From: Pelagibius litoralis
Lineage (GTDB): Bacteria; Pseudomonadota; Alphaproteobacteria; Kiloniellales; DSM-21159
DNA length: 64,000 nt
Assembly: GCA_029287455.1 (NCBI GenBank)
Contig: JARFRB010000025.1
Location: 1 to 64,000, forward strand
Reading direction: 5' to 3'
In this document: piece by piece, positions 13,858 to 21,633 of the stretch
How positions within the stretch are numbered: the first letter of the stretch is position 1
How the letters are laid out: each line of letters begins with the position of its first letter
The notes under the pieces: model-generated
What the model was told of the DNA's origin: nothing
The model's database searches: none
What the model saw: only the letters and a program-made list of their open reading frames with translations
Program-made: the position numbers and the translations under genes

Positions 13858-13981
13858 GGCCTTGGGCGCCGGACTTTCCCGATTAAGAGTGTGGCCCTCC
13901 CCTACCTTCTCGTGGGCTTAACGACAGCAAAGCGTGATACCCTAACGTCAACTTGTCCAAGTGATCGAAAGGATTGTGCGC

Positions 13982-14449
13982 ATGCTTCGCTACGCCCACC
14001 GTCACCTCGCCAAAACTACCGCGCTCTTGGGCTTCCTCGCCGCAGTGGCGTGCGGGTCCATGGCCTACGCGCAGGCGGATGTCATCGCGGAGCGGCAGAA
14101 GCTGATGAAGGAAATCGGCGATGGAATGAAGGCCTTGGCGCCGGTCTTCAAGGGCACCGAAGCCTTGGGTGAAAAGGCCGAAGCATCGGCAAAACTCATC
14201 GAAGCGAATTTCTCCAAAGCGCGCGACCTGTTCCCGGCCGGCAGCACCTCCAAGGACAGCGATGCCTTGGAGACCATCTGGAGCGAGAATGCCGGTTTTC
14301 TGACTGGGTTCGACAAGGCTGAGGAGTCGGCGGCAGCCGTGGTGGAGGCCTCCGCGCGCAAAGAGGACGCCGATTTCAAGGCCGCTCTGGCGAAGCTGGG
14401 ACAAACCTGCAAGTCCTGTCACGAAAAGTACCGGAAGCCCTCAAACTAA
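13982..14449 (+). CDS. Cytochrome c' (c556 type), periplasmic
   Basis: The 155-residue precursor has a signal peptide (about residues 1-32, cleavage after AYA) and a single C-terminal haem-binding CKSCH about 12 residues from the end, the arrangement of the four-helix-bundle cytochrome c' family. Members bind NO or act in periplasmic electron transfer. ATG at 13982 was preferred over GTG at 13961 because AAAGGA lies 9 nt upstream and it leaves a compact signal peptide. The next gene encodes another c-type cytochrome 18 bp downstream, so the two are probably co-transcribed. Confidence 0.92.
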   Translation: MLRYAHRHLAKTTALLGFLAAVACGSMAYAQADVIAERQKLMKEIGDGMKALAPVFKGTEALGEKAEASAKLIEANFSKARDLFPAGSTSKDSDALETIWSENAGFLTGFDKAEESAAAVVEASARKEDADFKAALAKLGQTCKSCHEKYRKPSN

Positions 14450-14467
14450 GGCAGGGCCGATAGCACC

Positions 14468-15388
14468 ATGCCACGGCCATCCTGGCTCCGGATCCTGCTT
14501 GGGGTCTGCGTCCTTGGGGCGTTTGGTCTGGGTGCGGCCCTTTGGGTGACACGCCCCGAGCCGCTAGCCGCGAACAAGCTGCCGGCGGACCATGTTGACG
14601 ATGTGGAGAATGGCCGGGAACTGTTTCTCGTCGGTGGCTGCCTGTCATGCCACGGGCCGGATCCGGCACAGAATCCACAGGCCGACACGGCGCTTCCCTC
14701 GGGCGGCAAGCCCCTGCCGACCCCGGTCGGCACGTTCTTTCCACCCAACTTGACGCCCGATCCGGAAACCGGAATTGGAGACTGGAGCCCCGAGACCTTC
14801 GCGAATGCCATGCTGCGGGGTGTGTCGGCGAACAGCGAACACCTTTTCCCGGCTTTTCCCTACACGTCGTACCAGCATATGACCGTGGAGGACGTTCTCG
14901 ATCTGCGCGCCTATTTGATGAGCCTGCCGGCGGTCCGCCAAGCACCTCGTGGCGACTCGGTTCCCCTCAGCGCCATTGCCCGGCCGTTCATCGGATTGTG
15001 GAACCTCCTGGCCCTTGACGGGAAGAACTTCGAACCCGATCCCACGCGCCCAGCGAGCTGGAACCGGGGCGCATACCTGGTCGAGGCGCCCGGCCACTGC
15101 GGTGAATGCCATACGCCGCGTGATATCTTCTTGGTGCCGGAACGCAGCCGCTACTTGGAAGGCGGCCCTCACCCGAGCGAAGCGGGCAAGGTGCCGAGCC
15201 TCCGCGGATTGGTCGGCGGCCGCGCCTACGCCACCAGCGAAGACCTTTACGACGCGTTCAAGTACGGCGAAATGTTCGGCTATGATGGGCTATCAAGCGG
15301 CGGAATGGGCCAGGTACAAGCCAACCTGGCAAGCATTAACGACAGCGATCTGCGCGCGATCGTCGACTACCTTGCATCGCTGAAATAG
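14468..15388 (+). CDS. Diheme cytochrome c, dehydrogenase-partner type
   Basis: This 306-residue protein has an N-terminal membrane anchor or signal (LLGVCVLGAFGLGAALWV) and two haem motifs, CLSCH (about residue 58) and CGECH (about residue 213). The text between them (FPPNLTPDPETGIGDWSPE, then FPAFPYTSYQHMTVEDVLDL) is characteristic of cytochrome subunits of membrane-bound alcohol, gluconate and related dehydrogenases; those usually carry three haems, this one two. It could accept electrons from a periplasmic dehydrogenase, perhaps the GMC enzyme at 23.1 kb, but that link is only inferred. Confidence 0.88.
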   Translation: MPRPSWLRILLGVCVLGAFGLGAALWVTRPEPLAANKLPADHVDDVENGRELFLVGGCLSCHGPDPAQNPQADTALPSGGKPLPTPVGTFFPPNLTPDPETGIGDWSPETFANAMLRGVSANSEHLFPAFPYTSYQHMTVEDVLDLRAYLMSLPAVRQAPRGDSVPLSAIARPFIGLWNLLALDGKNFEPDPTRPASWNRGAYLVEAPGHCGECHTPRDIFLVPERSRYLEGGPHPSEAGKVPSLRGLVGGRAYATSEDLYDAFKYGEMFGYDGLSSGGMGQVQANLASINDSDLRAIVDYLASLK

Positions 15389-15425: not shown

Positions 15426-16151
15426 CTAGGCGTCGCGGATATACTCGACCGCCTCGCCATCCTTCTTGAACAAGCCCTTCACCCAGTCGCCCGTTTCGTC
15501 GTACCAGATGTGGCCGGCCATAGTCGGCGTCACGAAGCGGTACTTGCGGGCCTCCTCGACACCCTCGGGCACGTCGACCTTGTCCTTGCCCTCGAATTGG
15601 GTGCTGACGTTCATCACGTCACCGTTTTGCGAATCCAAAACCCGCCGTTCGTCGAGAATCTTGGGCGACCAAAGCGTGTTCGACGTCATCACGTTATGCG
15701 GCGCGATGACGTGGCCGAACTTGCCTTGGGTCTCGAAACCCTCGGCGGTTCGCGTGCCGCTCATCTCCACATCCTCGCCATCGTCGTGAGTCCGGCTGGC
15801 GACGGATTGCAAAAACCCTTCACGCCAAACCTCTTGACCTTCGTGCTCGTAACGATAAGCCGTGATGAAGGCCACCTTCACAAGCATGTCGACGCTCGTC
15901 GTGACCGTGAAGCTGCCATTGCCACCCATCGGCACGATGGTCTGAACGTGACGGCCGATATCGGAACCCTGCCAAAAGATCTTGAAGGACAAGGATTCCT
16001 GCACTGGAGGAGCCAAATCGGATGCCATAACCAGCCCAGGCGTTAAGCCGGCTGCGCAGCCCATCAAGCTGCCACTCAAGAATCCTCTGCGCGACACGTG
16101 CCCAAAAACCGCGCGCCCGTCTCGCGAAGACGCTCCGACCCGCCTCTTCAT
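15426..16151 (-). CDS. Tat-exported protein of unknown function (DUF6134-like)
   Basis: The 241-residue protein begins with a twin-arginine signal (SRRGFLSGSLMGCAAG) ending near VMAS. The mature part is predicted to be beta-rich (FKIFWQGSDIGRH, MAGHIWYDETGDWVKGLFKK) and resembles proteins grouped as DUF6134. I recognise no catalytic motif. It lies downstream of msrP on the same strand with a 184-bp gap, and converges on two cytochrome genes, so it may belong to a periplasmic redox group. The function is unknown. Confidence 0.7.
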   Translation of the reverse strand: MKRRVGASSRDGRAVFGHVSRRGFLSGSLMGCAAGLTPGLVMASDLAPPVQESLSFKIFWQGSDIGRHVQTIVPMGGNGSFTVTTSVDMLVKVAFITAYRYEHEGQEVWREGFLQSVASRTHDDGEDVEMSGTRTAEGFETQGKFGHVIAPHNVMTSNTLWSPKILDERRVLDSQNGDVMNVSTQFEGKDKVDVPEGVEEARKYRFVTPTMAGHIWYDETGDWVKGLFKKDGEAVEYIRDA

Positions 16152-16335: not shown

Positions 16336-17346
16336 CTACATGAAAAGCCGCTCGTTCTGCTTGTCCGCATAGAGGTCCGCTACGAACTCGCCATAACCGT
16401 TGTAAAGCTGCGTGGGCACGCGTTCGTCGGAACCCAAGACTTGTTCGGTCGCCTGGCTCCAGCGGGGATGCGCAACTTCGGGGTTAACATTCGCCCAAAA
16501 GCCGTACTCGCTGCCCTGCAGCTCCTCCCAAAAGCCGACCGGCCGCTTATCGGTGAACTCGAAGGCAACAACCGATTTGATGCACTTAAAGCCGTATTTC
16601 CAAGGCGTCACCAACCGCAAAGGCGCGCCATTCTGCCGGGGGATCGGCTTGCCATATAGGCCGGTCGCAATGAAGGCGAGCTCATTCGTCGCCTCCTCGA
16701 TTGTCAAACCCTCCACGTAGGGCCAAGGGTACCAGGACGCCCGCTGACCACGCATCACATCCGGGTCGTGGAGGGTGGTCATCTTGAGATACTTCGCCCC
16801 GGAAAGCGGTTTGGCGAATTCCACGAGCTGACGCAGCCCAAAGCCGCTCCACGGCACCGCCATCGACCAAGCCTCGACGCAGCGGTGGCGGTAAAGCCGC
16901 TCTTCCAAGGGCATCTTCGCAAGAAGCTCGTCGACGCCCATCTCGAAGGGCTGTTCCACCAAACCATCGAAGCGCACCATCCAGGGGCGAATAGGCAACT
17001 GCTGCGCTGCGCGATGGATGTTCTTGGACGAGCCGAACTCGTAAAAGTTGTTGTAGGTAGTCGCCAACTCCTCGTCCGTCACCGGGCGGTCGAGCTTATA
17101 GCGCAGGTTGTGCGTCACCGGATAAAGCCCGGCGGAAGGATCGGGCTTCGGATCGGCGGCCGCGACCAGCACCGCATCGCCCGCCTCGGCCACGTTATCG
17201 TCGCAGGCCGACAGGACGGACCCCATACCAAGGATCAACGGCGTCGCCACCATGCCTTGCAGGAGCCGCCGGCGATCACGGTAGACCGCTTCCGGCGTCG
17301 CCTCGCGCTCGCTCATCTCCCAACCGCGCTTGACCCGAATTAACAT
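16336..17346 (-). CDS. msrP: Protein-methionine-sulfoxide reductase catalytic subunit MsrP
   Basis: MsrP (YedY) is a periplasmic molybdopterin enzyme that repairs methionine sulfoxide in exported proteins. A Tat signal is visible (YRDRRRLLQGMVATPLIL). The sulfite-oxidase fold carries the Mo-coordinating Cys in YRHRCVEAWSMAVPWSG and the family motif PWKYGFKCIKSV. The start MLIRVKRGWE at 17346 follows GAGGAGC and matches the family N-terminus; six upstream codons are probably untranslated. The membrane haem partner MsrQ is not adjacent. Molybdenum-cofactor genes occur at 38-40.5 kb. Confidence 0.95.
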   Translation of the reverse strand: MLIRVKRGWEMSEREATPEAVYRDRRRLLQGMVATPLILGMGSVLSACDDNVAEAGDAVLVAAADPKPDPSAGLYPVTHNLRYKLDRPVTDEELATTYNNFYEFGSSKNIHRAAQQLPIRPWMVRFDGLVEQPFEMGVDELLAKMPLEERLYRHRCVEAWSMAVPWSGFGLRQLVEFAKPLSGAKYLKMTTLHDPDVMRGQRASWYPWPYVEGLTIEEATNELAFIATGLYGKPIPRQNGAPLRLVTPWKYGFKCIKSVVAFEFTDKRPVGFWEELQGSEYGFWANVNPEVAHPRWSQATEQVLGSDERVPTQLYNGYGEFVADLYADKQNERLFM

Positions 17347-17463
17347 GGCGTGCTCCTCACACAATCAGCATACTGACCTGTTCGCAGGCAAAATAAGCCA
17401 AACGCCGAGCTATTCCAGTCAACTTGCCGCGAGGTTGGCGTCATCCAGCCTATTCAGGCCGGC

Positions 17464-17754
17464 CTATTCGTGATCGCGGATTTCCCCTTCACTGTAGAGA
17501 AATTCGTCCAAATACTTGGCGAAGGTGGGGTTGTTGCGCCGCATCCACTCCAGCACCATGGCCGCGTGCTCCATCTCCTCGCGCATGTTGTGGAGCAGGA
17601 TTTCCTTGAGAGCAGGATCGTCGCAATCGTCGGCGCGCTGGCGGTACCAATCCACCGCCTCCAGCTCTTCCATCAGCGAAGAGATGGCCTGGTGCATCGC
17701 CAGGGTTTCCTTGGACAAACGCTCGCGTGGGGCGTGGAGACTTTCGCTGGACAC
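17464..17754 (-). CDS. Encapsulated-ferritin-like (EncFtn) protein without targeting tail
   Basis: The core (ISSLMEELEAVDWYRQRADD, then HNMREEMEHAAMVLEWMRRN) matches the two-helix EncFtn family first described in Rhodospirillum rubrum, including the iron-site acidic residues in MEELEAVDWY and the ExxH of EEMEHAAM. EncFtn assembles into decamers with ferroxidase activity inside encapsulin shells. I chose GTG at 17754 (reads VSSESLHAPRERLS) because GGGAG lies 8 nt upstream and family members start near there; the frame extends to ATG at 17844. The protein stops directly after GEIRDHE, with no visible C-terminal encapsulin-targeting peptide, and no encapsulin gene is adjacent. Confidence 0.85.
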   Translation of the reverse strand: MSSESLHAPRERLSKETLAMHQAISSLMEELEAVDWYRQRADDCDDPALKEILLHNMREEMEHAAMVLEWMRRNNPTFAKYLDEFLYSEGEIRDHE

Positions 17755-17949
17755 TTCGCATTCTCCCATGTCGTGATATGCCGAGATCGAAACCCTGGCC
17801 GGGTGCGCTTGAAGCGGGACAGGGACGAGGTACACTCGCGCCATTCATAGCCCCTGGAGATGGCGGTGCAACCCCATATCGGCCCGGAGCGGAAGCGCAG
17901 GGGGCTAGGGCGCTATCGCCAGGCAATGGGCGAAGGGGGGAGGACCCAC

Positions 17950-19254: not shown

Positions 19255-21291
19255 TCACGAATGGACTAACTGCTCCTCCCGCGCGCCGACAACTTTGTCC
19301 GCGAGCCGGCCCTGCAGCTCTTGCAGATGATCGAAAGCCCAGGTGAAAGTGCCGATCCCCTGCGTGAGGGAGCGTAACTCGACGATCAGGTCCTGGAGTT
19401 CCGACTGCGGCATGTAGGCCTTGACCTCGTCCCAACCGGCCCAACCCTCGCGGGCGTCGAAGCCGAGAATTTGGCCGCGCCGACCGCTAATCAAGCCGTG
19501 GACCTTATTCGTAAATTCGCTAGGGACGTGGATCGCCACCTCGCAAATCGGCTCCAACAGGACGGGGTCGCACTTGGGCAGGCCTTCAGACATGGCCAGG
19601 CGCCCGGCGGTCTTGAACGCCATGTCGGAGCTGTCCACCGCGTGGAATTGCCCGTCATGCAAAGTCACCGCGAAGTCCACCACCGGGAAGCCCAGCGGGC
19701 CACGCACGGCGAAGTCCCGAATACCCGCCTCGACCGCCGGGATGTATTGGCGCGGGACCGCTCCGCCGACGATCTTGTCATGGAAAGCGAAGCCGGAGCC
19801 GCGCGGCATGGGCTCGATCTTCACCTTGATATCGGCGAACTGGCCATGACCGCCCGTTTGCCGCTTGTGACGGGCGTGCTGCTCGATCCCGCGACGGATG
19901 GTCTCGCAATAGGCGGGGTGCGGCCGGTCCGTTGAGACCTCGACATTGTAGCGATTCTTCAGCTTTTCGGCGGCGAGCTGCAGATGGATCTCCCCCTGCC
20001 CCCACAGCCGCATCTCCTGCGCCTGGGCATCGTGCTCAAGGGAAATCGAGGGATCTTCCTCCACGAGCTTCGCCACCGAGGCCGTGAGCTTGACTTCGTC
20101 CTGACGATTGACCGGGCGAATCGACAAGGCATAGACCGGCGAAAGCGGCTCCGGCCAGGCAGGCCCGCCCGGTGCCGAGGCGCCAGCCTCCGTCACAAGC
20201 TGACCGGTGGCGAGATTGTCCATGCGCCCCAGGGCGACCAGGTCCCCTGGGCGCGCAAGCGGAAACTTCTCAAGATGCTGGCCTTGCATGCGCAGCAGTC
20301 CAGAGAGGCGCTCGCCACCGAGGCTCATGCCCTCCTTCACCTCGCCGCTCCAAATCCGCGCCAGATTGATCTTGCCGGTATGAGGCAGGTGGAAGGTCTT
20401 GACGATGCTGGCCGCGAGCGGCCCGCTATCCGAAACGCCCAGGCGCTCGGCGGTCTCGGCCACCCCGGGAGTTTCGTGGCGCAAGGCCTTGAAGAGCCGA
20501 TGGATGCCGTTCCCGTGCTCTGCGGAACCCAGGAACACCGGCACCACCAGGTCGCCCGCCAGGTCCTTTTCCAGTTGCGCGTAGACTTCCTCGCTGGCCG
20601 GGACACGATCCTCCAGCAATTGCTCGAGCAAGCCGTCGTCGAAGTCCGCCAGGGTTTCCAGCATTTCCTGGCGCGCCTCGCTTTCGCGCTCACGCACGGA
20701 ATCCGGCATTTCGATCAAGGCTGATTGCTCGTCTTCGCGGTAGCGCCAGGCCCGCTCGCTCACAAGGTCCACCGCCCCCACGGTCGTCTCGCCCTCACGG
20801 ATCGGGACCTGCCGCAGCGCCAAGGGCCGAGAGGAGACCCCCTGCAGCGCCGACAGGATATCGCGCACCCGCTGAGCCGCCTTATCCATCTTGTTGATGA
20901 AGATCATGTGCGGGATCTTGAAGTCGTCCAGGAACTTCAGAAGCGGCGCCACGGTGACCGCGCGATCGAGTTCGGGCTCCGCCACCACCACGGCCACGTC
21001 CGCGGCCATCAGGCACCCGCGCGTATCCTGCGCCAGCTCCACCGACCCGGGACAATCGATAAATGCCCAGTTCTGGCCCAAATAATCGCAACCGGCGACG
21101 TTGGGCTCCACGCTCATGGTGTGCGCGCGCGCTTCCACCGAGCCGTCACCCAGGGTGGTGCCGTCGTTCACGCTGCCTTTGCGCTGCAAGGCACCGCTTG
21201 CGTGCAAAAGCGCCTCGAGCAGCGTCGTTTTGCCGCTCGTGTAGGGTCCGACAATCACGGCACAGCGTGTCCCGCTCACGGTCTTGGTCAT
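19255..21291 (-). CDS. Elongation factor G-like translational GTPase paralogue
   Basis: This 678-residue protein has EF-G domain order: GTPase (residues 1-260, with NKMD), domain II, III, IV and a C-terminal V (PMRG- and QLAAEKLKNR-type motifs; FADIKVKIEPMPRGSG). The P-loop is GPYTSGKTT instead of the canonical GHIDAGKTT, and the G3 motif is DCPGSVEL instead of DTPGHVDF, so the catalytic His is replaced by Ser. This marks the EF-G-like subgroup rather than housekeeping FusA. ATG at 21291 is supported by GGGAGG; the open frame continues 35 codons upstream. The role is unknown, perhaps ribosome rescue or stress-related. Confidence 0.88.
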   Translation of the reverse strand: MTKTVSGTRCAVIVGPYTSGKTTLLEALLHASGALQRKGSVNDGTTLGDGSVEARAHTMSVEPNVAGCDYLGQNWAFIDCPGSVELAQDTRGCLMAADVAVVVAEPELDRAVTVAPLLKFLDDFKIPHMIFINKMDKAAQRVRDILSALQGVSSRPLALRQVPIREGETTVGAVDLVSERAWRYREDEQSALIEMPDSVRERESEARQEMLETLADFDDGLLEQLLEDRVPASEEVYAQLEKDLAGDLVVPVFLGSAEHGNGIHRLFKALRHETPGVAETAERLGVSDSGPLAASIVKTFHLPHTGKINLARIWSGEVKEGMSLGGERLSGLLRMQGQHLEKFPLARPGDLVALGRMDNLATGQLVTEAGASAPGGPAWPEPLSPVYALSIRPVNRQDEVKLTASVAKLVEEDPSISLEHDAQAQEMRLWGQGEIHLQLAAEKLKNRYNVEVSTDRPHPAYCETIRRGIEQHARHKRQTGGHGQFADIKVKIEPMPRGSGFAFHDKIVGGAVPRQYIPAVEAGIRDFAVRGPLGFPVVDFAVTLHDGQFHAVDSSDMAFKTAGRLAMSEGLPKCDPVLLEPICEVAIHVPSEFTNKVHGLISGRRGQILGFDAREGWAGWDEVKAYMPQSELQDLIVELRSLTQGIGTFTWAFDHLQELQGRLADKVVGAREEQLVHS

Positions 21292-21633
21292 GGCATCCTC
21301 CCGCTCCGGCCCCTCTTCTTCGTTCATTGTTTCGCGGGGTCGCGGATGGACGTTCGGGCCGTGATCCGTCCAATCCCAGTGGCGCGCCGCTCCCACATGT
21401 TTTCAAACTCGGCGCCAAGCTGGCAACAGGAATCGCTCCTGAGGGTCTGGCTTGCAGGACACAAGGATATCTCCGCCGGGCGGCGGCTTTGGAGTTCCTG
21501 TGGGCTTTCCGCCTGCTATACTCCTGGCTCAAGCCTCGATTTTCCCGCCCAGAAAACGGCGCGGGCAATAACAGCGGCGAGAGGGCCGGAAGTCCGAAGA
21601 GCCCAAGCAAAGCGCCGACGACGGGAGGAAGAC
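21292..21633. other. Divergent intergenic region, no gene seen
   Basis: This 342-base gap lies between the leftward EF-G paralogue and the rightward ribbon-helix-helix gene. It should carry both promoters. A TATACT box lies near 21518 reading rightward, with no clear -35. I see no repeat, RNA or credible coding sequence. Confidence 0.4.

What the first reader, a model, noticed from the sequence alone, without database searches (positions are those of the whole stretch)
17464..17754. Orphan encapsulated ferritin lacking a targeting peptide
The ferroxidase core of EncFtn is intact, but the C-terminal extension that directs cargo into encapsulin shells is absent and no encapsulin gene is nearby. 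A free EncFtn would have ferroxidase activity without a storage compartment, which raises the question of where the iron goes.
Basis: partly seen in the sequence, partly recalled or inferred. Interest (0 to 1): 0.58.

Follow-up and report, generated by a model that had tools for sequence, protein, structure and literature searches.

The report
Shell-less encapsulated-ferritin relative (s-FLP)
This gene encodes a small iron-oxidising protein of the kind usually packed inside a protein shell, but here, as in most of its relatives examined, there is no shell gene and no packing tag, so it very probably works free in the cell to detoxify iron; the type is already known, but why it exists without a shell is still open.

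Summary
Window 17464-17754 (-) encodes a 96-residue EncFtn-like protein (PF22277, 127 bits) with all ten metal-site positions intact, a natural stop and no targeting peptide in any frame. The 96%-complete genome has no family 1 encapsulin.

The interpretation "orphan" is only partly right. Tailless EncFtn is a published class: "Non-EncFtn" in 2016, "s-FLP" in 2024, solved structure 3k6c. It is the commoner form here. Of 77 alphaproteobacterial genomes with a strong match, 60 are tailless with no encapsulin gene anywhere, 16 have an encapsulin plus a tailed copy, and one is undetermined. Locally, 23 of 23 tailed genes have an encapsulin about 0.6-0.7 kb downstream; 0 of 124 tailless genes have one in the flanks held. 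This argues against the published putative C-terminal targeting motif of s-FLPs.

Likely mechanism (inferred): a free decameric ferroxidase that removes Fe2+ under oxidative stress. Relatives link it to Dps plus a ZIP transporter, or to a rubrerythrin / Fe-S oxidoreductase / DUF3501 operon. This genome keeps ZIP and, elsewhere, the rubrerythrin operon, but has no Dps at the syntenic site. Where its ferric iron goes stays unanswered.

The parts
17464..17754 (-). s-FLP / tailless EncFtn-like gene, 96 aa, GTG start (alternative ATG at 17769, 101 aa)
   Evidence: PF22277 127.4 bits; best PDB matches 5n5f, 7oe2, 5da5, 3k6c; predicted fold matches 5da5/5n5f/3k6c; metal residues intact
17464..17499 (-). 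C-terminal end LYSEGEIRDHE plus stop: no targeting peptide; terminal His pattern typical of the tailless class
   Evidence: motif compared with Table 2 of PMC11202242
18381..19160 (-). ZIP-family metal transporter; also found near the s-FLP in two relatives, where a Dps gene stands next to it
   Evidence: PF02535 81 bits; synteny in L115 and L116
17860..18375 (+). Glyoxalase/dioxygenase-superfamily gene, divergent neighbour
   Evidence: PF00903 39 bits; not a conserved neighbour
16336..17364 (-). Molybdopterin-binding (sulfite-oxidase-like) oxidoreductase, conserved neighbour in this group
   Evidence: PF00174 98 bits; near the s-FLP in relatives
19255..21396 (-). EF-G-like GTPase, the other conserved flank of this locus
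   Evidence: PF03764, PF00009, PF00679, PF14492; synteny

Best explanation
It is a member of the shell-free EncFtn class (s-FLP). By homology, two-helix subunits pair to make a four-helix bundle with a di-iron ferroxidase site and assemble into an annular decamer free in the cytosol. It oxidises Fe2+ with O2 or H2O2 to limit Fenton chemistry under oxidative stress and does not itself store mineral. In relatives with Dps or bacterioferritin, these cages are the likely sink for the ferric iron. In this genome, where neither was found, it probably acts as a detoxifying ferroxidase beside the rubrerythrin operon, with small amounts of ferric iron held at its surface sites or re-used. Shown: gene, intact ligands, predicted subunit fold, no tag, no family 1 encapsulin gene or PF00210 gene found, genomic contexts. 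Inferred: decamer, activity, free location, iron fate.
For: Family and ligands. No encapsulin and no ferritin found in the genome. A tag goes with a shell: 23 of 23 tailed and 0 of 124 tailless genes have an encapsulin in the flanks held. 60 of 77 EncFtn-positive genomes are tailless without any family 1 encapsulin. Two genomes, G018 and G428, have a tailless copy besides a tailed copy with an encapsulin. Stress and iron contexts: Dps neighbour in 4 distinct genomes; the gene lies between an Fe-S oxidoreductase and DUF3501 of a rubrerythrin operon in beta/gammaproteobacteria; this genome holds that operon behind a Fur-family gene.
Against: No biochemistry on any tailless EncFtn was found in the papers seen; 3k6c is called unpublished in PMC11202242. 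The rubrerythrin context holds for about 9 of 124 tailless loci and the Dps context for 4 genomes; most loci have neither. In this genome the rubrerythrin operon lies on another contig (C79, window C80). PF00210 absence is not a general partner of tailless EncFtn: in the class sample EncFtn-positive genomes lack it less often (4 of 64 against 77 of 323).
Confidence: 0.6

Rival explanations
1. It is encapsulated after all: a shell gene sits in the unassembled 4% of the genome, or a non-family-1 shell accepts it through the short C-terminus (the putative LFTD.KPIAHE-like tag of PMC11202242).
For: The genome is 96.29% complete; the end LYSEGEIRDHE resembles the putative motif; the family 2 shell model PF19307 gave no hit, but its control rang nowhere, so that test is void.
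Against: The same C-terminal pattern recurs where there is no family 1 encapsulin: 60 of 77 EncFtn-positive genomes are tailless without any encapsulin. Encapsulin genes always go with a 50-66-residue tagged tail in the loci counted.
Confidence: 0.06
2. It is a di-iron enzyme of another kind, for example a peroxide reductase working with rubrerythrin and the Fe-S oxidoreductase, not an iron-handling ferroxidase.
For: Operon with rubrerythrin, RFO and DUF3501 in several beta/gammaproteobacteria; no storage cage is needed then; [quoted passage not shown]
Against: The metal entry, ferroxidase and exit residues named for R. rubrum EncFtn are all kept (residue roles from PMC5012862 passages); a Dps and ZIP neighbourhood in relatives points to iron handling.
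Confidence: 0.22
3. It is a relic: an EncFtn that lost tail and shell and is decaying.
For: Shell, tag, Dps and bacterioferritin are all missing.
Against: Ten of ten metal-site positions are invariant among 124 tailless proteins; open frame with start signal; 88% identity to the relative L116; the same place between EF-G-like and sulfite-oxidase-like genes is kept in relatives.
Confidence: 0.04

Closest known systems
s-FLP class: Nitrosomonas europaea NE0167 (PDB 3k6c); 'Non-EncFtn' of He et al. 2016
   Same: About 95 residues, EncFtn core, no targeting peptide, short C-terminus of the LFTDKPIAHE kind
   Different: This protein belongs to the alphaproteobacterial NMREEMEH branch rather than the group with NRDEEKEH sequences (split 100/99; NE0167 itself was not in that tree); the end is LYSEGEIRDHE
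Encapsulated ferritins: R. rubrum Rru_A0973 (5da5) and H. ochraceum (5n5f)
   Same: Fold and metal residues; 53-57% identity
   Different: No 50-66-residue tagged tail and no encapsulin gene
Rubrerythrin / RFO / DUF3501 oxidative-stress cluster (PMC5114695)
   Same: In several beta/gammaproteobacteria a tailless EncFtn gene lies inside this cluster; this genome has the cluster
   Different: In this genome the cluster and the s-FLP are unlinked

Membership tests
EncFtn-like family (PF22277) | Profile score over the curated cut-off | tested here: met
   127.4 bits against 27
EncFtn-like family (PF22277) | Two long helices plus a short one; ferroxidase residues E32, E62, H65, Y39 and entry site E31, E34 (R. 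rubrum numbers) | tested here: met
   Helices 20-48, 52-79, 81-90; Foldseek TM of query 0.78-0.84 to R. rubrum chains and 0.79-0.80 to 3k6c; residues present
EncFtn-like family (PF22277) | Iron-dependent D5 decamer with ferroxidase activity | not testable with these tools
   Only the monomer was predicted; decamer and activity rest on published homologs
Encapsulated ferritin (encapsulin cargo, TIGR04535) | C-terminal targeting peptide on an extended tail | tested here: not met
   23 residues after EWMRR, no motif, no hidden frame
Encapsulated ferritin (encapsulin cargo, TIGR04535) | Encapsulin shell gene next door or in the genome | tested here: not met
   PF04454 0 matches in the genome; control rings in 3 of 14 genomes
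Encapsulated ferritin (encapsulin cargo, TIGR04535) | Score over NCBIfam cut-off | tested here: not met
   107.4 bits against 125
s-FLP class (PMC11202242) | Short EncFtn core without long disordered tail or apparent targeting peptide | tested here: met
   96 aa
s-FLP class (PMC11202242) | Terminal LFTD(E/N)KPIAHE-like sequence (putative) | tested here: inconclusive
   LYSEGEIRDHE is similar, not identical; 96 of 124 tailless proteins have a His in the last five residues, 0 of 23 tailed
Classical ferritin / bacterioferritin / Dps (PF00210) | Profile match | tested here: not met
   Not among the Pfam matches of this protein

The most novel reading that the evidence does not exclude
Tailless EncFtns are a shell-independent functional class, not cargo with a cryptic tag: free ring ferroxidases or peroxidases tied to peroxide defence, with the conserved terminal His serving metal or partner binding. 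Tail plus shell would be an exchangeable module added to or removed from this ring several times, and in a few bacteria such as this one the ring is the only EncFtn/ferritin/Dps-type protein besides rubrerythrin.
Probability: 0.3. Interest if true: 0.6.

Novelty: new member of a known kind. Interest (0 to 1): 0.38.

Why it matters
A 2024 review leaves open whether tailless EncFtns are packed into shells and offers a putative targeting motif. The survey here gives a direct genomic answer for alphaproteobacteria: most genomes that carry the tailless form have no family 1 shell to be packed into. A genome with this ring, a rubrerythrin and no ferritin, Dps or encapsulin found would be a clean place to ask what a ferroxidase without a store does.

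Tried and rejected
Hidden frameshift or tail: the other two frames past the stop show no targeting motif, and the end matches that of homologs. Encapsulin elsewhere in the genome: none. Family 2 shell (PF19307): none, but the control rang nowhere, so nothing is concluded. Tailless EncFtn as a general substitute for ferritin: rejected as a rule. In the order sample EncFtn-positive genomes lack PF00210 more often (7 of 17 against 7 of 44, Fisher p 0.047, relatedness not corrected), but in the class sample less often (4 of 64 against 77 of 323, p 0.001). Six of the 60 class-sample EncFtn-positive genomes that do have PF00210 have only weak matches (E 2e-5 to 8e-4). Single origin of tails: the tree needs 6 changes by parsimony and at least 2 on starred branches, yet the AU test of one tailed clade gave p 0.065, not a rejection. 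A first tree dropped 17 rows through a strict pattern and was redone. The second PF02915 match on C79 (24.9 bits) was judged by eye and recall to be COQ7-like, not an MbfA exporter. Rows left out of the 124/23 count: 7 duplicates of named records, L123 (broken frame), L186 (runs off its contig), L002 and L121 (stop misread at first; both tailless on re-reading). In the cluster of 10 upstream Fe-S proteins one, L057, looks like a different protein, so I count 9.

Full report
Observation. It matches PF22277 EncFtn-like with 127.4 bits and the solved encapsulated ferritins 5n5f and 5da5 and N. europaea NE0167, 3k6c. An AlphaFold2 model from 41 aligned sequences (mean pLDDT 87.8) overlays R. rubrum Rru_A0973, H. 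ochraceum EncFtn and 3k6c. The positions equal to the R. rubrum ferroxidase, entry and exit residues (roles from passages of PMC5012862) are intact, and invariant in all 124 tailless proteins counted, this one included.

The tail. The protein stops 23 residues after EWMRR. In 147 deduplicated loci, 124 tailless proteins have 22-47 residues there and no targeting-like motif; 23 tailed ones have 50-66 residues, ending in motifs such as LGIGSLR, FTIGSLK, LTIGRMK or LGIRSLK. No such motif appears in the two other frames past this stop. NCBI's encapsulin-associated model TIGR04535 scores 107.4, under its cut-off of 125; it does pass for at least one tailless protein with no encapsulin in its 10-kb flanks (L078, 143 bits), so that name alone is not proof of encapsulation.

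The shell. The window's genome (3.63 Mb, 141 contigs, 96.29% complete) has no PF04454 match (control rings in 3 of 14 genomes). Locally, 23 of 23 tailed genes have an encapsulin gene centred about 0.6-0.7 kb downstream and 0 of 124 tailless genes have one in the DNA held, up to 10 kb a side but much less for short contigs. Across whole genomes, a strong EncFtn match occurs in 17 of 61 genomes of the order and 64 of 387 of the class sample. The union is 77 genomes: 60 tailless with no encapsulin match anywhere, 16 with an encapsulin and a tailed copy (G018 and G428 have a tailless copy too; G018's tailed copy is broken and its encapsulin matches are fragments), and 1 undetermined, G347, whose gene runs off its contig. 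Two weak PF04454 matches (G035, G438) lie in genomes without strong EncFtn.

What is published. He et al. 2016 (PMC5012862, passages) drew a tree with a 'Non-EncFtn' group lacking the encapsulin sequence. A 2024 review (PMC11202242, passages) names s-FLPs, says it is unclear whether their short C-terminus holds a binding sequence, and lists a putative uncharacterised motif LFTD(E/N)KPIAHE. So the class is known. The genome counts above speak against that motif being an encapsulin tag in most of these bacteria. A His within the last five residues occurs in 96 of 124 tailless and 0 of 23 tailed proteins, which suggests another job for it; that is inference.

Where could the iron go. The genome shows no PF00210 match (control 14 of 14), although its own rubrerythrin scores 35.7 bits against PF00210 when scanned as a whole protein, so weak members can be missed by the genome search. 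A relative's bacterioferritin finds a match in 6 of 6 family members tested but none here, and all 11 other genomes of the family have at least two PF00210 matches. In the window ZIP is kept, but only about 95 bases separate it from the EF-G-like gene, so no Dps stands at this site. Incomplete assembly could still hide a copy elsewhere.

Second context. In nine loci of the beta/gammaproteobacterial type the tailless gene directly follows an Fe-S oxidoreductase gene (PF02754), nine have a DUF3501 gene directly downstream (not all the same loci), and six have a rubrerythrin upstream (Pfam names tested on one representative each). The trio rubrerythrin/RFO/DUF3501 is published (PMC5114695, abstract and passages; 'encapsul' occurs 0 times there). 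I found no paper linking tailless EncFtn to it in the searches, which cover only the held library. The window's genome has the trio, behind a Fur-family gene, on contig C79, apart from the s-FLP.

Evolution. In a tree of 101 cores one branch (100/99) separates an NMREE group (52 tailless, 9 tailed) from the rest (26 tailless, 14 tailed); parsimony needs 6 changes of tail state, starred branches force at least 2. The AU test of a single tailed clade gave p 0.065, so repeated exchange is likely but not proven; with 88 columns and no root, gain and loss cannot be told apart.

Verdict. The mechanism, a free ferroxidase for iron and peroxide defence, is inferred from family and context and needs the bench.

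Noticed in passing
G000:C79:97616-100887 (L234:3217-6488): Fur-family regulator, rubrerythrin, Fe-S oxidoreductase and DUF3501 genes in a row: the known aerobic rubrerythrin cluster in the window's genome.
   Followed up: yes
L181 and L220 (G428); L120 and L123 (G018): Two genomes hold both a tailed EncFtn with an encapsulin and a separate tailless copy; in G018 the tailed copy has a broken frame and the encapsulin matches are fragments.
   Followed up: partly
L020, L035-L039, L211, L212, L214: Tailed EncFtns of the NMREE branch (tails ending FTIGSLK, LTIGRMK and the like) stand beside encapsulins that look divergent: those of L211, L212 and L214 score 222-225 bits for PF04454 against 282-335 for the other strong ones. 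Possibly a second encapsulin lineage in this class.
   Followed up: partly
L078:10001-10285: A tailless EncFtn with no encapsulin in its 10-kb flanks scores 143 bits, over the cut-off 125, for NCBIfam TIGR04535 'encapsulin-associated ferritin-like protein': the name can mislead.
   Followed up: partly
window 13961-15388: Two small cytochrome-like genes with CxxCH motifs (seen by eye) near a DUF6134 gene (15426-16151) and the sulfite-oxidase-like gene: perhaps a periplasmic redox group beside the s-FLP.
   Followed up: no
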